Shown: piece after piece, positions 1-19,260 of the stretch
Numbering within the stretch: position 1 is the first letter of the stretch
How the letters are laid out: every line of letters starts with the position of its first letter
Assembly (NCBI GenBank): GCA_029862005.1
Contig: JAOTYD010000021.1
Coordinates: 1-52,739 of the forward strand
Reading direction: 5' to 3'
From: Gammaproteobacteria bacterium
GTDB lineage: Bacteria > Pseudomonadota > Gammaproteobacteria > GCA-001735895
Length of the DNA: 52,739 bases
The notes under the pieces: generated by a model
Told to the model about the DNA's origin: nothing
Seen by the model: only the letters and a program-made list of their open reading frames with translations
The model's database searches: none
Program-made: the position numbers and the translations under genes

Positions 1-420
1 CGACATCCCTGGCATCCCTGGCATTCCCATTCCTGGCATTCCCGGCATTCCCGACATCCCTGGCATCCCTGGCATTCCCATTCCTGGCATTCCCGGCATT
101 CCCGGCATTCCCGACATCCCTGGCATTCCCATTCCTGGCATTCCCGGCATTCCCGGCATCCCTGGCATCCCTGGCATTCCCATACCGGGCATCATGCCCA
201 TGCCTGTCATGGGATTCATCATCCCCGTCATCGGCGCCATCATCATGCCCGTCATTGGATTCATCATCATTCCCATCGGCGCCATCATCATCCCGGTCAT
301 CGGATTCATCATCCCGGTCATCGGTGCCATCATTCCCGTCATCGGGTTCATCATCCCGGTCATCGGTGCCGCCATTCCCGTCATCGGGTTCATCATCCCG
401 GTAGCTGCTCCACCGTAGGT
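1..420 (-). repeat. In-frame tandem repeats coding the Met-rich tail
   Basis: Bases 1-180 are a nested repeat: 9-bp units coding Gly-Met-Pro are arranged in longer units that restart with the same nine bases near 1, 52 and 112, so the longer period is 51-60 bp. Bases 190-410 hold a second repeat type of about 21-30 bp coding MTGMMNP/MTGMMAP. All spacings are multiples of three and the frame is kept, which indicates selection on the protein. There are no non-coding spacers, so this is not a CRISPR array. Confidence 0.9.
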
Positions 421-3262: not shown

Positions 3263-4096
3263 ATGAAAAAGATACTGACCACCCTGGGGATTGCCATCCT
3301 GATAGCGCTGCCTTTTAACACGATGGCAACGCCACAGCAGGACCTGGCGGAATTTCGGGATTATTACAAGAAACGCTTTCCCGGCACCCCGTTCGATGAT
3401 TACATCAACGGCGTATACTCGATTGATCCGGCATCACGCGAACAATGGGAAGAAATCGAGGAATTTCCACCCTACGAACTAAGCCTCAGCAGGGGCGAGG
3501 AACTATTCAACAAGCCGTTTGCCAACGGTAAAACCTATGCCAGTTGTTTTGAAAATGGCGGTATTGGCATTCGTCAGAACTATCCTTACTTCGATACCGA
3601 CCGTGGCGAAGTGATTACACTGGAACTGGCGATCAACGAATGTCGTGAAGCCAATGGCGAGAAAAAGTTGAAGTGGAAAAAAGGTCCGATCGCCGATATT
3701 TCCGCCTACATGGCCTATACCTCGCGCGGTAACATCATCGACATCAAGATCCCGGATGATCCGCGCGCAATCGCAGCCTATGAACGCGGCAAGAAACACT
3801 TCTACCAGAAACGCGGCCAGCTCAACATGGCCTGCGCCGATTGCCACAAGTTTTATGCCGGTAACAAGGTGCGCGCCGACCTGCTGAGCCCTGCCCTGGG
3901 GCAACTGAGCCATTTTCCAGTATATCGTTCCAAATGGGGCGGCATGGGTACCACGCACCGTCGTTACGGTGGCTGTAACAAGCAGGTGCGTGCCAAGGAC
4001 TACCCGGCGCAAAGCGCAGAGTACCGCGCGCTCGAATACTTCCACACCTACATGAGTAACGGCCTCGCGGTCAACGGACCCGGCGCCAGGAAGTAA
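3263..4096 (+). CDS. soxA: SoxA, catalytic cytochrome subunit of SoxXA (single-haem type)
   Basis: SoxA provides the active site of SoxXA. The 277-residue protein has a signal peptide (about 1-22). Only one haem c motif is present, C191-A-D-C-H195; at the place of the N-terminal haem of dihaem SoxA there are only isolated cysteines, C95 and C127, likely a disulfide. The active-site haem-ligand cysteine is C238 in the RYGGCNKQ motif. This is therefore a monohaem SoxA. A GAGGAGG ribosome site precedes the ATG. The operon ends just after the gene at a strong terminator. Confidence 0.95.
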   Translation: MKKILTTLGIAILIALPFNTMATPQQDLAEFRDYYKKRFPGTPFDDYINGVYSIDPASREQWEEIEEFPPYELSLSRGEELFNKPFANGKTYASCFENGGIGIRQNYPYFDTDRGEVITLELAINECREANGEKKLKWKKGPIADISAYMAYTSRGNIIDIKIPDDPRAIAAYERGKKHFYQKRGQLNMACADCHKFYAGNKVRADLLSPALGQLSHFPVYRSKWGGMGTTHRRYGGCNKQVRAKDYPAQSAEYRALEYFHTYMSNGLAVNGPGARK

Positions 4097-4118: not shown

Positions 4119-4148
4119 AATGCCGGGTCATCGACCCGGCATTTTTTT
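4119..4148 (+). terminator. Rho-independent terminator of soxXYZA
   Basis: An 11-bp perfect stem (AATGCCGGGTC at 4119-4129 with GACCCGGCATT at 4133-4143), a 3-base ATC loop and a run of T to 4148, located 23 bp after the soxA stop. Classic intrinsic terminator. Confidence 0.9.
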
Positions 4149-4163
4149 ATCCCCAAAGGGGTA
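4148..4163. promoter_or_regulatory. 16-bp inverted-repeat site before tusA
   Basis: TATCCCCAAAGGGGTA has the same 16-bp 7-2-7 layout as the site upstream of soxX. Its right half read in reverse is TACCCCT, an exact match to the NarL heptamer pattern. It directly follows the soxA terminator and is 185 bp upstream of tusA. Operator role is inferred. Confidence 0.4.
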
Positions 4164-4603: not shown

Positions 4604-5083
4604 ATGTCTGAGAAAAAACTGGCGCTGATCGCCACCAAGGGCACCCTGGATTGGGCCTACCCCCCCTTCATTCTGGCATCCACTGCCGCCGCCATCGGTT
4701 ACGAAGTGCAGATATTCTTCACTTTTTACGGATTGCAGTTGCTCAAGAAGGATATGAACCTCAAGGTCTCGCCGCTCGGCAATCCCGGAATGCCGATGCC
4801 GATGGGTATGGACAAATGGTTCCCGACGATCGGTACCGCGATCCCCGGCATGGAAGCCATGATGAGCAGCATGATGAAATCCAAGATGAAATCGAAAGGC
4901 GTCGCCAGCGTGGCCGAGCTGCGCGAGTTATGCCTCGAAGCTGACGTTAAACTGATCGCCTGTCAAATGACGGTCGATTTGTTCGACATGCAGCCGAGTG
5001 AGTTTATCGACGGCATCGACTACGCCGGTGCCACTACTTTTTTCGAATTTGCCGGGGAATCGGACGTCAACCTGTTCATCTAG
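4604..5083 (+). CDS. dsrE2: DsrE2-like sulfurtransferase (DsrE/F family)
   Basis: A 159-residue protein of the DsrE/DsrF superfamily, closest in pattern to DsrE2, which accompanies TusA. The N-terminus has the beta strand and hydrophobic helix of the fold (LALIATKGTLDW, then PPFILASTAAAIGYEV). A Met-rich loop spans about 63-95. The conserved cysteine is C120 in KLIACQMTVDLFDM; C110 is a second. The hydrophobic segment fits the membrane-associated behaviour described for some DsrE2. The likely role is sulfur transfer between imported sulfane sulfur and TusA. Confidence 0.85.
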   Translation: MSEKKLALIATKGTLDWAYPPFILASTAAAIGYEVQIFFTFYGLQLLKKDMNLKVSPLGNPGMPMPMGMDKWFPTIGTAIPGMEAMMSSMMKSKMKSKGVASVAELRELCLEADVKLIACQMTVDLFDMQPSEFIDGIDYAGATTFFEFAGESDVNLFI

Positions 5084-8846: not shown

Positions 8847-9044
8847 ATGAATCAGGCATATCGTGACGCGGTCACCAAGATGGAAGAAATGAAGGTCCAG
8901 GAGGAATATATTCTTGGCTGGCAGGGTGGTTTTCTGGGGCATCCGCAACGTGAAGAGCAGCGTCTCACAGACGCTTACGAAGCGGGCTACGAAGACGGCA
9001 GTGCCAAAACTACCGACAATTTTGCCAACTGGGTCGAATCCTAA
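8847..9044 (+). CDS. Small conserved-looking protein of unknown function (65 aa)
   Basis: A 65-residue acidic soluble protein (EEYILGWQGGFLGHPQREEQ, then AYEAGYEDG) with a CAGGAG ribosome site 7 bases before the ATG. It has no cysteine and no membrane segment. The good ribosome site and codon usage support a real gene. It is 134 bp after the yeeE-type gene and overlaps the 3' end of the convergent 186-residue gene by 4 bp. No family recognised. Confidence 0.65.
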   Translation: MNQAYRDAVTKMEEMKVQEEYILGWQGGFLGHPQREEQRLTDAYEAGYEDGSAKTTDNFANWVES

Positions 9045-9601
9045 GTCTCAAAAACAACGAGCCCGGACAGCGATCGTTTCAGCGCCGATTCAATTTCAGG
9101 GGCCTCCCTGCCAATTATATAGTCAGGGATCCAGCGCTTATCGCGCTCACCCATGGTCGCTTTGACGCGGTCCCCAAGGCAACAGCGCATCGCGAAACTG
9201 CCGCCCTCCAACTCGTCGAATCCATAACCCGCGTAGTCTGACGAGCGCCGATTCATCTTGTCGATAAAATCAGCCTGGTATTCGCCCTCGCCCTGCACGT
9301 CGATGCGACTATCTTCAAGCATGCGTGCTAAATCCTTGACCAGGCAATTTATAAACTCGATGCGCTGATCCTGGCTAGCCTTTGGATAGATCCAGCGATC
9401 ACAGAAATGCACCAGGTAACAGACCATTTCCTCCATGATATCGATGCGCTGATATTGCGTCGTGGTTTCGAAATTCTCGTTTTCCAGGTTCAGCACGACG
9501 TTAGCAGCGAGCTTAAAAATCGTCGCGCCAATCGCGTTCGCCATTTGTGCAGCCGACCTCGGCCTCTCGCCCTGGTTCCAGCTTTTCTTGACTCGTACCA
9601 T
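9041..9601 (-). CDS. Protein of unknown function (186 aa)
   Basis: A soluble 186-residue protein with no signal peptide. It contains an all-helical first half (AAQMANAIGATIFKLAANVVLNLE, followed by a YLVHFCDRWIYPKAS segment) and four cysteines, including a C-C pair in AMRCCLGDRV. It follows the alpha/beta hydrolase gene by 25 bp on the same strand and probably shares its transcript. I do not recognise the family. The helical, N-rich start could suit a protein-protein interaction role. Confidence 0.65.
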   Translation of the reverse strand: MVRVKKSWNQGERPRSAAQMANAIGATIFKLAANVVLNLENENFETTTQYQRIDIMEEMVCYLVHFCDRWIYPKASQDQRIEFINCLVKDLARMLEDSRIDVQGEGEYQADFIDKMNRRSSDYAGYGFDELEGGSFAMRCCLGDRVKATMGERDKRWIPDYIIGREAPEIESALKRSLSGLVVFET

Positions 9602-11985: not shown

Positions 11986-12657
11986 ATGTTAGTAATAATT
12001 CCAGACCTGTTAAATTCTGCCCAACTAAATGCGGTTTGTTCCGTGCTGCGTCAGGGTGATTTCGTCGATGGCAAGCTAAGCGCCGGTAAAGACGCGCAGG
12101 CCATAAAAAACAACCAGGAGCTTGCGCCGGACGAGGACCGTTTTAATGCACTGAATAACGTCATCATGACCGAGCTGGTGCAAAACCCGATCTATCTGCA
12201 GACCGCCATGCCGGCACGAATAGCTGCCCCAATCTATGCACGCTATGAACCCGGCATGGCCTACGGCGGCCACATCGACGATCCGATCATGGGGCCACCA
12301 GGTTCAAGATATCGTTCCGATATATCGATCACCATTTTCCTGAACGGGCCCGACGAATACGAAGGCGGCGAGCTCTGTATTGAGTCGCCCAACGGCAACA
12401 GGAAAATCAAGCTTGCGGCCGGACATGCCATACTCTACCCATCTACCAGTTACCACTCGGTAAGCCAGGTAACCGCGGGAGAACGCCTGGTGGCGATAAC
12501 CTGGGTACAAAGCCATATTCGACGCGCCGATCAGCGTGAAATACTGATACAACTCGATCAGGCCCGTGAATCACTCTCTGAAAACTCCAGCAGTCACACC
12601 CATCACCAGGTTAATCTTTGCTATGCCAACCTGTTTCGCATGTGGGCGGAATCCTAG
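11986..12657 (+). CDS. PKHD-type Fe(II)/2OG hydroxylase (PiuC/YbiX-like)
   Basis: A 223-residue PiuC/YbiX-like hydroxylase. The N-terminus (IPDLLNSAQLNAV, then FVDGKLSAG) and the KNNQEL motif match that family. Iron ligands are H96-x-D98 (GGHIDD) and distal H157 (STSYHSVSQV); R167 (AGERLVAITW) would bind 2-oxoglutarate. Family members are often linked to iron or siderophore uptake, but no TonB receptor gene is next to this one. It is convergent with the rspA/cas6-like operon, 6 bp from the end of the 67-residue gene. The substrate is unknown. Confidence 0.88.
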   Translation: MLVIIPDLLNSAQLNAVCSVLRQGDFVDGKLSAGKDAQAIKNNQELAPDEDRFNALNNVIMTELVQNPIYLQTAMPARIAAPIYARYEPGMAYGGHIDDPIMGPPGSRYRSDISITIFLNGPDEYEGGELCIESPNGNRKIKLAAGHAILYPSTSYHSVSQVTAGERLVAITWVQSHIRRADQREILIQLDQARESLSENSSSHTHHQVNLCYANLFRMWAES

Positions 12658-12663
12658 ACGTCA

Positions 12664-12867
12664 TCAACGATGCGAGCCTTTCTCTGCATGCGCCATGTCG
12701 ACCAGTTTTGTCGCCAGCTCGTCATAGGTACGCTTTTGTTTCGCCAGCTCCGAATCACCTTCGGGGTCGTAGTAATCCTCGGCTGAAAACTTGCCGGCCT
12801 GTTCGATTTCGATAAACTGGCGCTGCAATTCCAGCATCTGCTTAATGACTTCCTGTTTTTCACTCAT
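12664..12867 (-). CDS. Small helical protein in the cas6-like/rspA-like operon (67 aa)
   Basis: A 67-residue highly charged protein predicted to be mostly helical (KQEVIKQMLELQRQFIEIEQAGK, split at G25 into a DYYDPEGDSELAKQK linker and a second helix). GAGG lies 8 bases before the ATG. It is the last gene of the tauD-like, cas6-like, rspA-like operon, 42 bp after rspA. It has no cysteine. Its length and two-helix form suit an adaptor or partner protein. No family recognised. Confidence 0.7.
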   Translation of the reverse strand: MSEKQEVIKQMLELQRQFIEIEQAGKFSAEDYYDPEGDSELAKQKRTYDELATKLVDMAHAEKGSHR

Positions 12868-12909
12868 TAGGTTTTCCTCGCTTAATCTATTATCCGGTGT
12901 GGCTGCTGC

Positions 12910-13251
12910 CTAGTAGCCGCCTTTCCTGCGACTTTCGGGCAGGCCGGCAATTCTACCACCCTGTTTACTTGGATCCCCCGGGAATAAATCATAAAGCGTC
13001 TTGGCATTGATTGATTTATCGCCCCAGGCACTGGCCATCGCTTTAACCAGATTCCGGGTGTTGGGCTGGTTACCCGCGTTATTGATATATTCGTCACGCA
13101 AATGATTGATCAGGTCCCAGTGCCGCTCAGCGAGTTCCAGTTTCTCCTGCTCGGCAAGAACCCTGGCGACAGATTCAGACCAGTCCTCGACATTTTCCAG
13201 AAATCCCGTCGCCGTGGTCGGAATCTCGTTACCATCTACATTAATGCTCAT
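12910..13251 (-). CDS. rspA: Cysteine-less DsrC paralogue (RspA-like)
   Basis: This 113-residue protein is a DsrC/TusE fold member: the N-terminal GNEIPTTATGFLENVEDWSE, the NHLRDEYIN helix and the C-terminal LYDLFPGDPSKQ and IAGLPES segments align with DsrC encoded at 18876. The C-terminal arm lacks both sulfur-carrying cysteines: the equivalent of CysB is Gly (GGRIAGLPE) and the penultimate CysA is missing, replaced by RRKGGY. It cannot carry a trisulfide like DsrC. DsrC homologues without both cysteines have been called RspA (regulatory sulfur-related) in the DsrC literature. GAGG precedes the ATG. It sits 35 bp after the cas6-like gene. A regulatory or competitor role is inferred. Confidence 0.85.
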   Translation of the reverse strand: MSINVDGNEIPTTATGFLENVEDWSESVARVLAEQEKLELAERHWDLINHLRDEYINNAGNQPNTRNLVKAMASAWGDKSINAKTLYDLFPGDPSKQGGRIAGLPESRRKGGY

Positions 13252-13286
13252 ACTTTCAACCTCAAAATACTCTCCTGGTTTGCAAA

Positions 13287-13973
13287 TTATTCCTGAACGT
13301 TGTTTACCGGGTCTATTCCCTTGTGTGGCACAAACAGGCCACAGCCTAGTATCTGGTCCTCGCCCAGCCCCCTCTGCTGCAGCATTACGGATTCTTCGGG
13401 TTCAAGGTCGGCAACCAGCAGCGCCCTGGTAAAAATTGTTTCATCGGCCGTGCGTATTTCGCCCGTCTTGCCGCAAATCATTTTGGATACCCTGATATTC
13501 ATCGCGTTTAGCAGCTCAGCGACCTGGGCCAGGAAGTCAGCTTCCGATTGGTCGCGGTCACAGCATACTGCGCGCGCATAAAGCGTGCTGATCGTCGATA
13601 GCTTGCGAATTGCACTTTCACCAACCGCCAGCTGCTGAGAACCGATGTGCAGCGTTTTATCAGTGATCCTGGCAACCTCGTCGCTGTCGTCTCGATGCAC
13701 CCGTATTGCGAGGCGAGCGCGACGTGACAATGGCAGCTCGGCACCAATTTGATCGGGTCGATTCCAGCCGTTCCCGGAACCTGCCATACGCACGCCGTGT
13801 ACCCCTATCTTGTTGTAAGTATCACTTTTTAAATGCAACTGCAGCGCTTCCGACAGCGCAAAGGCATGGTCTATATCGAGACTGGTGCCTCGCAGTTTGA
13901 ATACCAGGTCATACACATCGTCGGGTACCTGGAACTCGTTTTCGGATTCGTTATCATCGCGCCAGAACATCAT
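13287..13973 (-). CDS. Orphan Cas6/Cmx6-like RAMP protein
   Basis: The 228-residue protein resembles the Cas6/Cmx6 (subtype I-MYXAN) family of CRISPR RNA endonucleases. Visible features: N-terminal VPDDVYDLVFKLRG strand followed by LDIDHAFALSEAL (H36), IGVHGV (H59), a basic LSRRARLAIRV strand, a FTRALLVADLEPEESV segment, and a C-terminal Gly-rich loop RGLG at 201-204 running into GCGLFVPHKGI, typical of RAMP folds. H36 or H59 could be catalytic. There is no CRISPR array or other cas gene in the window. It sits between the tauD-like gene (15-bp gap) and rspA (35-bp gap), divergent from dsrA. An RNA-binding or RNA-cutting role in sulfur-gene control is possible but not shown. Confidence 0.75.
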   Translation of the reverse strand: MMFWRDDNESENEFQVPDDVYDLVFKLRGTSLDIDHAFALSEALQLHLKSDTYNKIGVHGVRMAGSGNGWNRPDQIGAELPLSRRARLAIRVHRDDSDEVARITDKTLHIGSQQLAVGESAIRKLSTISTLYARAVCCDRDQSEADFLAQVAELLNAMNIRVSKMICGKTGEIRTADETIFTRALLVADLEPEESVMLQQRGLGEDQILGCGLFVPHKGIDPVNNVQE

Positions 13974-13988
13974 AGTAATCCTGTATGC

Positions 13989-14933
13989 CTATGCTTTCAG
14001 GCCGGAGCCCTTGTCGATATCTATCGCGTCGTAGTAGCGTGCCCGATAAACCAGTCGTGGCGGCTGGTCAGCCCCATCATGAAAAGACTGGCGCCCGTGC
14101 AGGATATTATTGCAAACGATTCCCTGCTGCGCCTCGAGCCTGATTTCTGTCATCGCGTTACTATCCATCAGAATTTCACGCACCAGGTTTAGCGCGCTTA
14201 CGCTCAGCCGGTCGGTCTTCCAGACGATATTGTGTGGACGGGAGGTATAGCGCATATTCAGTACACAGGTACCGGGCTGCAGCGAAAACACCGGCCCGGT
14301 TTCTTCCGTACGAATAATCCGGTTACCCTGAACATTTGCCGGTACGCACATCACATCATCGCACATCAGCGCCTTGAGCAGATCAGGCGCCCGATCCCTG
14401 ATCAGGAGGTACATCATCTCGTGATCAAACAGGAAGTTACCGCCACCGCGCGCGGATTGATTTACACAATACAGTGCGAAGGCGTTGATTCGACGACCAT
14501 CAGGATTGTAGTAACCATCCGTATGCCAATTCATTCCGCGGTTGGAATAGGGGATATATTGTGAACGATGATCGGATTCACTAACCACCTGAAGCGACGT
14601 GACTTTATCCTCGTCCGCACCCAGGTTGATATCCAGATCCTGCAGTCCAAATTGCCGATTAAGTGTCAGGAACCCTGATTTTCCCAGCTCACCTGCCGAC
14701 TCAAAAATGACGAAATTAAAGGCCGTTACCTGTCGCCTAATTTGGTCCAGCATCGACTGCGGCAAAATTGAAGCATGATCCAGCGGATAGACCATAGTGG
14801 CATCCATTTCCTGTCGATAGCGTAACTTGCGCTCGCGCCAGGCCTGATACGCTCCTTCGTTTTCGAGCAGAAAAGGCGAATTGTCGTCGCAGTTGTTGAG
14901 TGCGGCAGTTATTTGGTCTAATGTTGCGTTCAA
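13989..14933 (-). CDS. TauD/TfdA-like Fe(II)/2OG dioxygenase
   Basis: A 314-residue TauD-type dioxygenase: H137-x-D139 in NWHTDGYYN, distal H279 in NNILHGRQSF, and a 2OG-binding arginine in PRLVYRARYY. TauD family members hydroxylate taurine and other compounds; this protein has a long N-terminal part (1-60) and no taurine-specific features I can point to. It is the first gene of a four-gene minus-strand operon (tauD-like, cas6-like, rspA-like, 67-aa) whose promoter faces that of dsrA across 388 bp. No sulfonate ABC transporter is nearby, so a role other than taurine use should be considered. Confidence 0.85.
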   Translation of the reverse strand: MNATLDQITAALNNCDDNSPFLLENEGAYQAWRERKLRYRQEMDATMVYPLDHASILPQSMLDQIRRQVTAFNFVIFESAGELGKSGFLTLNRQFGLQDLDINLGADEDKVTSLQVVSESDHRSQYIPYSNRGMNWHTDGYYNPDGRRINAFALYCVNQSARGGGNFLFDHEMMYLLIRDRAPDLLKALMCDDVMCVPANVQGNRIIRTEETGPVFSLQPGTCVLNMRYTSRPHNIVWKTDRLSVSALNLVREILMDSNAMTEIRLEAQQGIVCNNILHGRQSFHDGADQPPRLVYRARYYDAIDIDKGSGLKA

Positions 14934-15080
14934 TTCGGGTCCAGGCGGTTACATATAAATGGCTGAAACAGGCCTGATTCTATTACACGCGGGACCCGAT
15001 TGGAGCATCCCATCGGTAGGGGTTAAATTACTAGTTGGGCTGAACTTGTAAGTCCCTGATTTATATTAATATTGTTGGAC

Positions 15081-15099
15081 ATTCCCATGGCATGGGAAT
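15081..15099. promoter_or_regulatory. 19-bp perfect palindrome in the dsrA/tauD-like divergent promoter
   Basis: ATTCCCATGGCATGGGAAT has 9-bp arms around one central G. It is 223 bp upstream of dsrA and 148 bp upstream of the tauD-like gene, in the only long gap here (14934-15321), so it may be an operator for either or both directions. The half TTCCCAT is close to the TACCCAT half of the other sites but has different spacing. Confidence 0.5.
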
Positions 15100-15127
15100 A
15101 GTGCGAATCAGGCATGGAAAATTTACC

Positions 15128-15143
15128 TATCTCGTTGGGGATA
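15128..15143. promoter_or_regulatory. 16-bp imperfect inverted repeat upstream of dsrA
   Basis: TATCTCGTTGGGGATA keeps the 16-bp layout seen before tusA and soxX, with a good right half (TATCCCC in reverse). A second copy of GGGGATA lies at 15171-15177, next to a CCCC-AAGC-GGGG hairpin (15162-15174). The site is 178 bp upstream of dsrA. Operator role is inferred. Confidence 0.35.
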
Positions 15144-15321
15144 AGTTTCGAAATTACTGCACCCCAAGCGGGGGATAGCTCGATGCGGTTAATTCTACCA
15201 AACTAGTGCATACACCAGTATTCCACCGGGTAACTTAAGGGCATATTTCGGCATTGTTTCAGAATTTCCTGGGAACCAATGTCGGGAATCGTTAAAACTG
15301 ATAAACGGGAACATCACTATT

Positions 15322-16581
15322 ATGGCAAAAAAAGTACATGTCACCCCAATGCTCGACGAGCTCGAGAATGGCCCCTGGCCCAGTTTCGTTTCCGGAATCA
15401 AGCGCCTGCGAGATGAACACGATGACAAGCGTATCAGTGGTGTTGCCAACTCCCTGCTCGGGCAGCTGGAACATTCTTACGAAACCCGCAAAGGTTACTG
15501 GAAAGGCGGCACGGTCAGTGTTTATGGCTACGGTAGCGGCATCATTCCGCGTTTTTCCGAGGTCGCCCATGCTTTCGAGGAATCGAAGGAATTTCACACG
15601 CTGCGGGTTCAGCCCCCCGCCGGTAACTACTACACCACGGACATGCTACGCCAGCTTGGCGATAGCTGGGAAAAATACGGCTCGGGCCTGGTAACCTTCC
15701 ATGGTCAAACCGGCAACATCATGTTTATCGGCGCCTCGACCGAAAACACCCAGCATTTCTTCAACGAAATCAACGAGTACGGTTTTGACCTGGGTGGCGC
15801 GGGTCCCTGTGTTCGCACCGGCATGTCCTGCGTCGGCGCCGCTCGCTGTGAGCAGTCCTGTGCTGACGAAATGCGCATTCACCGCACCCTGTTAAATAAT
15901 TTCACCGATGACGTGCATCGTCCGGCGCTGCCCTATAAGTTCAAGTTCAAGGTTTCCGGTTGCGGCAATGACTGCATGAACTCGATCGAGCGTTCCGACT
16001 TTGCGATTATCGGTACCTGGCGCGATGATATGAAGGTCGACCAGGAAGCATTCAAGGACTATGTTGCCAAGAAGGGGCGACAGCACACGATCGATAATAT
16101 CATTACACGCTGCCCTACCAACGCCCTGTCGCTTAACGATGACGATACGCTCGAGGTTGATAACCGCAACTGCGTACGCTGCATGCACTGTCTCAACGTG
16201 GTGCCGAAAGCGCTGTCTCCCGGAGACGATAAAGGTGTCACGATTTTAATGGGCGGCAAGCGCACCCTCAAAATTGGCGACCTGATGGGCACCGTGATCG
16301 TGCCTTTCATGAAACTCGAAGATGAAGAAGACTTCGAAGCCTTGACTGAACTCGCCGAAGAGGTCATCGACTTCTGGGCCGAAAACGGTCTCGAGCACGA
16401 ACGCTGTGGCGAAATGGTAGAGCGCATCGGTCTGGTTAATTTCCTCGAAGGCATCGGCGTCGAAGTCGATCCGAACATGATCTCGGAAACCCGCACCAGT
16501 TCCTACGTGCGCATGGACGACTGGGATATCGAAGCCAAGAAATGGTTCGACCGCAAGGCCGAACAAAAACAAGCGTCGTAA
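15322..16581 (+). CDS. dsrA: Reverse-type dissimilatory sulfite reductase, alpha subunit
   Basis: DsrAB contains sirohaem and, in sulfur oxidisers, works in the oxidative direction, turning DsrC-bound sulfur into sulfite in the cytoplasm. DsrA here has 419 residues. The sirohaem/[4Fe-4S] cysteines are C170-x5-C176 and C214-x3-C218; the inserted ferredoxin domain has C264 and C284-x2-C287-x2-C290. It opens a 12.4-kb dsr operon. With dsrEFH and dsrL following, the gene is of the oxidative bacterial type. Confidence 0.97.
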   Translation: MAKKVHVTPMLDELENGPWPSFVSGIKRLRDEHDDKRISGVANSLLGQLEHSYETRKGYWKGGTVSVYGYGSGIIPRFSEVAHAFEESKEFHTLRVQPPAGNYYTTDMLRQLGDSWEKYGSGLVTFHGQTGNIMFIGASTENTQHFFNEINEYGFDLGGAGPCVRTGMSCVGAARCEQSCADEMRIHRTLLNNFTDDVHRPALPYKFKFKVSGCGNDCMNSIERSDFAIIGTWRDDMKVDQEAFKDYVAKKGRQHTIDNIITRCPTNALSLNDDDTLEVDNRNCVRCMHCLNVVPKALSPGDDKGVTILMGGKRTLKIGDLMGTVIVPFMKLEDEEDFEALTELAEEVIDFWAENGLEHERCGEMVERIGLVNFLEGIGVEVDPNMISETRTSSYVRMDDWDIEAKKWFDRKAEQKQAS

Positions 16582-18875: not shown

Positions 18876-19208
18876 ATGACTATTGAACTAGGCGGCAATT
18901 CCTACGAGACAGATGAAGAAGGATATCTCGTCAACCTGAGTGATTGGAGTGATGAACTCGCAAACGAAATGGCAAAAGCCGACGGCGCCGTGCTCGACGA
19001 TAATCACTGGGAAGTGATCAATTTCCTACGTGACTATTACGAGGAATACCAGATTGCACCGGCGGTTCGTGTCTTGACCAAGGCGGTGGGTAAAAAACTC
19101 GGCAAAGACAAGGGTACCAGCAAGTACCTGTATGAACTGTTTCCTTACGGGCCGGCCAAGCAGGCCTGTAAGTACGCGGGTCTGCCCAAACCTACCGGCT
19201 GCGTCTAA
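18876..19208 (+). CDS. dsrC: DsrC, sulfur-carrier substrate protein of DsrAB
   Basis: DsrC carries sulfur on a flexible C-terminal arm as substrate of DsrAB and then interacts with DsrMKJOP or DsrL. The 110-residue protein has both functional cysteines: CysB C98 (KQACKYAG) and penultimate CysA C109 (PTGCV). It is a full functional DsrC, in contrast to the cysteine-less copy at 12910. A strong hairpin follows at 19229, which should raise DsrC mRNA relative to the downstream membrane-complex genes. Confidence 0.97.
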   Translation: MTIELGGNSYETDEEGYLVNLSDWSDELANEMAKADGAVLDDNHWEVINFLRDYYEEYQIAPAVRVLTKAVGKKLGKDKGTSKYLYELFPYGPAKQACKYAGLPKPTGCV

Positions 19209-19228: not shown

Positions 19229-19260
19229 GGCAAAGGGAGCCACTCCCTTTGCCTTTGATT
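19229..19260 (+). terminator. Intra-operon hairpin after dsrC (partial terminator or processing site)
   Basis: An 11-bp perfect stem (GGCAAAGGGAG at 19229-19239 with CTCCCTTTGCC at 19243-19253), a 3-base CCA loop and TTTGATTT after it. The T tract is interrupted by one G, so termination would be incomplete. It lies between dsrC and dsrM, where a step-down in expression fits the need for much DsrC and less DsrMK. It could also be an RNA processing site. Confidence 0.75.

What the first reader, a model, noticed from the sequence alone, without database searches (positions are those of the whole stretch)
12664..14933. Operon linking an orphan Cas6/Cmx6-like protein, a cysteine-less DsrC (RspA-like), a TauD-like dioxygenase and a 67-aa helical protein, divergent from dsrA
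Seen: four closely spaced genes on the minus strand (gaps 15, 35 and 42 bp) sharing a 388-bp divergent promoter with dsrA; no CRISPR array or other cas gene. Known: Cas6 proteins bind and cut RNA hairpins; DsrC homologues lacking both cysteines (RspA) have been proposed as regulatory. Inference: a domesticated RNA-processing protein plus a sulfur-dead DsrC mimic could form a control module that reads DsrC/DsrAB state and acts on dsr or other mRNA, perhaps with hydroxylation by the dioxygenase. I recall Cas6/Cmx6 annotations near dsr genes in other sulfur oxidisers, but no function for them.
Basis: partly seen in the sequence, partly recalled or inferred. Interest (0 to 1): 0.88.

Follow-up and report, generated by a model that had tools for sequence, protein, structure and literature searches.

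The report
CRISPR-type RNase wired into sulfur oxidation
A relative of the CRISPR enzyme Cas6, with its RNA-cutting residues kept but no CRISPR around it, sits in a conserved gene cluster beside the sulfur-oxidation genes of almost every related bacterium examined that has them, together with a mimic of the sulfur carrier DsrC, which points to an unknown layer of control in microbial sulfur oxidation.

Summary
It is not a stray CRISPR gene. In 369 genomes of the class, Cas6-like and dsrA occur together in 111, Cas6-like alone in 7, dsrA alone in 8, neither in 243; 12 of the 15 discordant genomes end at or near a contig edge. The window's genome has no Cas1, nor do 44 of 80 carriers tested. The operon (tauD, a new ~60-aa ORF, sometimes a TPR-like protein, cas6, rspA, 67-aa) persists in all five 1.0-1.1 Mb genomes met. 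The Cas6-like protein keeps the presumed catalytic His (126 of 126 sequences; lost in one of four more distant relatives) and the glycine loop; its model matches CAST Cas6 (Z 23.8). RspA carries an RKGGY tail where DsrC has PTGCV, and viral contigs carry RspA too. A palindrome TATCCCN4GGGATA marks the dsr promoter. Most likely: a domesticated Cas6 acting on RNA, with a DsrC mimic, tunes sulfur oxidation. No RNA target was established; the mechanism is inferred.

The parts
13287..13973 (-). Cas6/Cmx6-like protein, 228 aa, orphan; His36, Arg91, Arg134 and glycine loop 202-212 kept (one less in the numbering)
12910..13251 (-). RspA-like (cysteine-free DsrC homologue ending RKGGY), 113 aa
13989..14933 (-). 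TauD-like 2-oxoglutarate/Fe(II) dioxygenase, 314 aa, TTG start; WHTDGYYN, LHxR and yRaRy motifs kept
12664..12867 (-). 67-aa protein of no known family, conserved in the module
14934..15321 (.). 388-bp divergent region between the TauD-like gene and dsrA
15128..15143 (.). palindrome TATCTCGTTGGGGATA, one mismatch from TATCCCN4GGGATA, putative operator
15160..15178 (.). second conserved promoter element CACCCCAAGCGGGGGATAG
15322..16581 (+). dsrA, divergent neighbour
11986..12657 (+). PKHD-type Fe2+ dioxygenase (YbiX-like), frequent convergent neighbour of the module; membership of the module uncertain
18876..19208 (+). dsrC with both tail cysteines, the counterpart that RspA resembles
19229..19253 (+). 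hairpin (11-bp stem, 3-nt loop) between dsrC and dsrM, weak candidate for a Cas6-like substrate

Best explanation
Shown: a conserved accessory operon of reverse-Dsr sulfur oxidation, without CRISPR neighbours, built round a Cas6-family protein that forms its own clade and keeps the presumed catalytic histidine and the glycine-rich loop, paired with a DsrC look-alike whose cysteine tail is replaced by RKGGY. Inferred: the Cas6-like protein still binds and in most lineages cuts a specific RNA, and RspA, by docking where DsrC docks (DsrAB, DsrEFH or DsrMK), couples that RNA step to sulfur flux, so that the module tunes the output of the dsr system after transcription. The TauD-like and 67-aa proteins are accessory. 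The RNA target and the contact partner are unknown.
For: Co-occurrence with dsrA 111/7/8/243 of 369 genomes. dsrA divergent within 3.6 kb in 53 of 58 loci, rspA next to cas6 in 57 of 66. Same cas6-rspA pair beside dsrA in four more distant class genomes. Operon whole in five of five 1.0-1.1 Mb genomes (with the ~60-aa ORF). His in 126 of 126, glycine loop kept. Cas6 fold, Z 23.8. RKGGY in 103 of 106 module RspA against PTGC[VI] in 49 of 50 at the dsrC position. RspA in 3 viral contigs, in one beside tusA and dsrC.
Against: No RNA target found; spacers of the operon show no shared structure. G750 has lost the histidine, and CAST Cas6 8fcj has N there. rspA is missing beside cas6 in 9 of 66 loci and the 67-aa gene in 26 of 66. 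In G149 and G363 cas6 lies away from dsrA. The 48 dsrA genomes outside the class lack the gene, so the Dsr pathway can run without it. The other reads on RspA docking rest on homology alone.
Confidence: 0.45

Rival explanations
1. The Cas6 fold has been reused as a protein-binding or assembly factor for the Dsr machinery and no longer acts on RNA.
For: G750 lost the histidine; positions kept only in the orphans (Trp3, SxNGWxRP, PH[KR]GI, numbering) suggest a new contact surface; no RNA target found.
Against: The histidine, Arg90, Arg133 and the glycine loop are kept nearly without change over 126 sequences and are shared with 5 CRISPR Cmx6.
Confidence: 0.25
2. Cas6-like and RspA act on tRNA: RspA takes the place of TusE in a complex that tests or trims thiolated tRNA, tying translation to sulfur supply.
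For: DsrC belongs to the TusE family; that TusE serves tRNA thiolation is stated in PMC3397948 (passages); a universal RNA target would fit retention in 1.0-1.1 Mb genomes.
Against: No direct evidence; RspA lacks the cysteine through which TusE works.
Confidence: 0.15
3. The Cas6-like protein cuts the hairpin between dsrC and dsrM and so sets the ratio of the two parts of the dsr transcript.
For: Strong hairpin after dsrC in 41 of 57 gamma regions, 36 of 57 at or below 5% of shuffles, a U-run after it in 5 of 57; 1 of 5 in genomes of another class without the gene.
Against: Absent in L148 and L181, reduced genomes that keep the gene; 2 of 4 distant carriers lack it; stem sequence is free; a general mRNA stabiliser would look the same.
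Confidence: 0.1
4. A CRISPR Cas6 that has merely strayed or was left behind by a lost CRISPR system.
For: Passes the TIGR02807 cut-off and would be named so.
Against: Cas1 absent in G000, in 29 of 34 carriers of the order and in 44 of 80 carriers tested; no array in 80 loci; separate from 5 CRISPR Cmx6 in the tree; fixed dsr synteny.
Confidence: 0.02

Closest known systems
Cas6/Cmx6 of type I-MYXAN CRISPR systems, and Cas6 of the type I-B CAST (PDB 8fcj)
   Same: Family models PF09559 and TIGR02807, fold (Z 23.8, rmsd 2.2 over 197 residues), presumed catalytic His (shared with 5 Cmx6), Arg residues and glycine loop.
   Different: No cas neighbours or array; scores 101-119 bits on TIGR02807 for three members against 206-255 for four cyanobacterial Cmx6; own clade; orphan-only conserved segments; dsr linkage.
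DsrC/TusE family, in particular the cysteine-free type named RspA (name recalled)
   Same: PF04358 and TIGR03342 matches; tail segment KQ..(K/R)(I/V)AGLP kept.
   Different: Tail RKGGY in place of PTGC[VI]; 86 of 106 have no cysteine at all, 19 one, 1 two. One of four distant relatives keeps the first tail cysteine.
TauD/TfdA dioxygenases
   Same: PF02668; His-x-Asp, distal His and Arg motifs kept.
   Different: Far from named equivalogs (best 36 bits against a 400-bit cut-off); substrate unknown.
Phage dsrC auxiliary genes (PMC8190135, PMC4164917, passages)
   Same: Viral DsrC-family genes, some without the cysteines.
   Different: The viral RspA found here carries the host RKGGY tail, once beside an intact dsrC and tusA.

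Membership tests
CRISPR-associated Cas6/Cmx6 | Cas6 family and fold | tested here: met
   PF09559 180 bits, TIGR02807 104.9 bits; model Z 23.8 to 8fcj_B
CRISPR-associated Cas6/Cmx6 | presumed catalytic His and glycine-rich loop | tested here: met
   126 of 126 and 5 of 5 Cmx6 for His; lost in G750. That the His is catalytic is recalled
CRISPR-associated Cas6/Cmx6 | lies with cas genes or a CRISPR array | tested here: not met
   no array in 80 loci; no Cas1 in G000
CRISPR-associated Cas6/Cmx6 | cuts CRISPR repeat RNA | not testable with these tools
   needs enzyme assay
CRISPR-associated Cas6/Cmx6 | groups with CRISPR Cmx6 in a tree | tested here: not met
   46 dsr-linked against 5 CRISPR sequences, branch 100/98, bootstrap not fully settled, few CRISPR rows
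DsrC (sulfur carrier) | two tail cysteines | tested here: not met
   none in the window protein; tail RKGGY in 103 of 106
RspA (cysteine-free DsrC homologue; name recalled) | DsrC fold family without the tail cysteines | tested here: met
RspA (cysteine-free DsrC homologue; name recalled) | regulatory role | not testable with these tools
   proposed in the literature as recalled; no assay here
TauD/TfdA dioxygenase | iron and 2-oxoglutarate motifs | tested here: met
   motifs conserved over 91 sequences

The most novel reading that the evidence does not exclude
A CRISPR RNA-processing enzyme was domesticated, early in the class, into a fixed RNA-based control module of reverse-Dsr sulfur oxidation, in which a cysteine-free DsrC mimic reports the state of the sulfur carrier to the RNase; viruses borrow the mimic to steer host sulfur metabolism.
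Probability: 0.35. Interest if true: 0.95.

Novelty: new variant of a known kind. Interest (0 to 1): 0.87.

Why it matters
Reverse-Dsr sulfur oxidation drives much of the sulfur cycle in sediments, oxygen-poor waters and animal symbioses, and its regulation is poorly known (recalled). That nearly every class genome with dsrA also carries the same unstudied operon, down to 1.0-1.1 Mb genomes, marks it as a likely missing part of the pathway. It would be a CRISPR-type protein fixed in core metabolism instead of defence, and it means that a 'type I-MYXAN Cas6' annotation in a sulfur oxidiser need not indicate CRISPR. The palindrome and the virus-borne RspA give direct handles for experiments.

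Tried and rejected
Stray CRISPR gene: rejected. Chance neighbourhood: rejected.

RNA target: cas6-rspA spacers show mainly ribosome-site-like words; the ~220-nt tauD-cas6 spacer turned out to code for a ~60-aa protein; the motif before the 67-aa gene I read as a promoter with operator, not as a Cas6 hairpin. A dsrB-dsrE word enrichment I took by eye for the end of dsrB. In the dsrA leader the conserved blocks are palindromes in the promoter; no covariation test was run there, nor on the dsrC hairpin (one search is an alignment only). Rfam gave two matches below their gathering scores. The dsrC-dsrM hairpin is kept as a rival only; one search returned zeros because of a faulty filter of mine and is not used. 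The 241-aa protein has no PDB match at E 0.001, the best are TPR domains at 0.016. Cas6-like in viral contigs: none confirmed. RspA of L235 against the phage collection gave 2 records, matched only up to residue 105, one annotated as TusE.

Limits of the counts. The Fisher p (7e-75) ignores shared ancestry. The 369 and 398 genomes are even draws, unnamed. The 80 carriers for Cas1 I picked from 118, leaning to the more complete; several Cas1 matches there are weak, and in G278 Cas1 lies about 22 kb from the Cas6-like gene. Loci L001-L030 and L117-L146 partly repeat genomes of L037-L116, so counts over 166 loci are redundant; the counts use the 80 loci and drop those with too little sequence (58 and 66 of 80 used). 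In one search only the best 80 of 270 relatives were returned. In one search five of 13 other-class genomes fetched gave a usable dsrC; the other eight were dropped for lack of one in the stretch. AF2 confidence is low at residues 1-10, 66-71 and 221-228, which include part of the orphan-only SxNGWxRP segment.
Full report
What is in the window. The Cas6-like protein matches PF09559 (180 bits) and narrowly passes the TIGR02807 Cmx6 cut-off (104.9 against 98.85 bits); four cyanobacterial CRISPR Cmx6 proteins score 206-255 bits on the same model. The DsrC-like protein has no cysteine and ends RKGGY. The TauD-like protein keeps its iron and 2-oxoglutarate motifs. The 67-aa protein reaches no family cut-off.

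Distribution. Within the order (41 genomes) the Cas6 family is found in 34, dsrA in 33, both in 30, neither in 4. In a draw of 369 genomes of the class, the orphan-Cas6 profile (E 1e-10) and dsrA (E 1e-30) coincide in 111, Cas6-like alone in 7, dsrA alone in 8, neither in 243. All 15 discordant genomes were looked at. Of the 7 Cas6-only, 6 have the contig edge where dsrA is expected, one of them still holding a dsrA fragment (G356), and G337 shows no dsrA in the 2.5 kb available. Of the 8 dsrA-only, 6 have a contig edge at or near dsrA, one of them with tauD and the ~60-aa gene up to the edge (G163); G250 has about 7.8 kb and G393 about 1.8 kb beside dsrA without the module. In a draw of 398 genomes of the phylum, 53 have dsrA; the 5 in the window's class all have the Cas6-like gene and the 48 outside it do not; 16 of the 48 were also tested with PF09559 at E 0.01, none matched. 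In the four class members other than the window's genome the gene lies directly divergent from dsrA, followed by rspA, a gene like window 9041-9601, and tauD, with other genes between in two of them. Of five other-class dsrA genomes looked at for neighbours, two carry tauD and the ~60-aa gene at dsrA without cas6.

The module. In the 80 loci kept from the single genome-contig scan (270 relatives confirmed), dsrA lies divergent within 3.6 kb in 53 of 58 loci with enough sequence, tauD in 46 of 58, the ~60-aa ORF in 42 of 58, a 241-aa helical protein in 22 of 58, rspA in 57 of 66 and the 67-aa gene in 40 of 66. The five loci without dsrA are L057, L078, L084, L087 and L104. The ~60-aa ORF is missing in most of the window's own clade, where tauD and cas6 nearly touch. 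Named hosts include Allochromatium palmeri, Thiohalocapsa, Thiohalobacter, Ca. Thiosymbion and the Olavius algarvensis Gamma 3 endosymbiont. In all five carriers of 1.0-1.1 Mb (G079, G182, G294, G325, G389) tauD, the ~60-aa ORF, cas6, rspA and the 67-aa gene stand beside dsrA; such genomes usually shed what they do not need (inference). Against strict linkage, in G149 (1.4 Mb) and G363 (1.5 Mb) cas6 lies about 42 kb and about 518 kb from dsrA.

Not CRISPR. G000 has no Cas1. Of 34 carriers in the order 29 lack Cas1; of 80 carriers tested in the class 44 lack it, among them 8 of the 12 single-contig genomes. No array-like repeats in 80 loci. In a maximum-likelihood tree 46 dsr-linked proteins stand apart from 5 CRISPR Cmx6 (100/98); the bootstrap had not fully settled, the CRISPR sample is small, two of the four distant members have long branches and the four do not form one group.

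The Cas6-like protein. Histidine 36 of the full protein (35 in the numbering) is present in 126 of 126 distinct class sequences and in 5 of 5 CRISPR Cmx6; Arg90, Arg133 and the glycine loop are shared. Kept only in the orphans are Trp3, the SxNGWxRP segment and PH[KR]GI. Of the four distant relatives, G750 has lost the histidine. The CAST Cas6 8fcj itself has N at that place in the alignment, so absence of the histidine does not exclude RNA binding. The AF2 model (mean pLDDT 86.7) fits 8fcj_B with Z 23.8, rmsd 2.2 over 197 residues, and the next different Cas6 with 16.6. That the histidine is catalytic is recalled from Cas6 work, not tested.

RspA. 103 of 106 distinct module proteins end RKGGY and 86 have no cysteine, while 49 of 50 proteins at the dsrC position end PTGC[VI]. 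The four distant class members end GKGGY, one of them with a cysteine at the first tail position. RspA-like genes occur in 3 viral contigs: a 219,676-base contig carries tusA, a dsrC with both cysteines and an rspA ending RKGGY in a row among phage-like genes, and a 13,892-base contig carries one ending RKGGY among small phage-like ORFs; the third I could not place. Gene names of viral neighbours are my reading of the ORFs. Kieft et al. 2021 (PMC8190135, passages) report 5 phage DsrC proteins with neither cysteine motif and read cysteine-poor ones mostly as TusE; Roux et al. 2014 (PMC4164917, passages) note a phage DsrC lacking the second cysteine. An RspA reading of such genes is mine and was not tested on their sequences.

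Promoter. The divergent region carries a palindrome TATCCCN4GGGATA: 65 of 83 distinct regions have it with at most one mismatch, against a mean of 0.4 of 83 in shuffles. The exact palindrome occurs at 10 sites in 8 of 20 genomes, 7 of them at dsrA by comparison; about 3.6 sites are expected in 60 Mb from base count alone (my arithmetic). The window copy is 15128-15143, with a second element at 15160-15178. A related element precedes the 67-aa gene in many loci. The four distant class members and five other-class genomes show no copy with under three mismatches at dsrA, nor does the reduced genome L181. The binding protein is unknown. PMC5944118 (passage) says that DsrC of A. vinosum can bind DNA upstream of the dsr cluster.

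RNA target. None was established. Spacers in the operon show no shared structure by eye or word count, Rfam gives nothing above its cut-offs. A strong hairpin follows dsrC in 41 of 57 gamma regions, with a U-run in 5 of 57, in 2 of 4 distant class members and in 1 of 5 other-class genomes. It is missing in L148 and L181, reduced genomes that keep the gene, and its sequence is free, so it is not a universal substrate.

How it most likely works. Step 1, a dsr-linked, non-CRISPR module: shown. Step 2, RNA binding and probably cleavage by the Cas6-like protein: inferred from residues and fold. Step 3, RspA docks at DsrC sites: inferred from homology and the fixed tail. Step 4, the two together adjust dsr output or another RNA: inferred from co-inheritance and adjacency only. 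My confidence is about 0.97 in step 1, 0.65 in step 2 and 0.45 in the whole.

Print record. Ten searches of the held open-access library found no paper that describes this module or a dsr-linked Cas6; several listings were capped, and only titles and abstract starts were seen there. In the four papers opened for 'cas6' the mentions were of CRISPR systems or gene lists (passages). PMC3397948 and PMC4853749 were also seen in passages. Most subscription papers and all preprints were not searchable, so earlier notice cannot be excluded.

Noticed in passing
window 4148-4163: TATCCCCAAAGGGGTA, one mismatch from the dsr palindrome, between a SoxA-like gene (3263-4096) and a DsrE2-like gene (4604-5083), so the same regulator may also govern other sulfur genes.
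   Followed up: partly
L235:3341-4342: A 219,676-base viral contig carries tusA, dsrC (both tail cysteines) and an RspA ending RKGGY in tandem.
   Followed up: partly
L233:3977-4318: An RspA-like gene ending RKGGY on a 13,892-base viral contig among small phage-like ORFs.
   Followed up: partly
between tauD and cas6 in 109 of 166 loci (e.g. L003, L082, L240): A conserved ~60-aa ORF (MLxLSE...DTPxxWEDRLEAxF) with no clear family; absent in the window's own clade, and found beside tauD and dsrA in two other-class genomes without cas6.
   Followed up: partly
L081:9259-9984 and relatives: A 241-aa helical, TPR-like protein directly before cas6 in 22 of 58 loci, with no family at any cut-off.
   Followed up: partly
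window 19229-19253 and L037-L116: A hairpin follows the dsrC stop in 41 of 57 gamma regions, its sequence free; possibly an mRNA stabiliser.
   Followed up: partly
L084 and L130: The module sits beside dsrE with no dsrA or dsrB recognised between them.
   Followed up: no
upstream of the 67-aa gene in many loci (e.g. L023, L072): A promoter-like TATAGT or TATATT with a palindrome just before it, differing between clades (CCCATNNGGGATAT or TATCACTATAGTGATA).
   Followed up: partly
window 1-411: Short tandem repeats at the start of the contig; whether they are coding was not checked.
   Followed up: no
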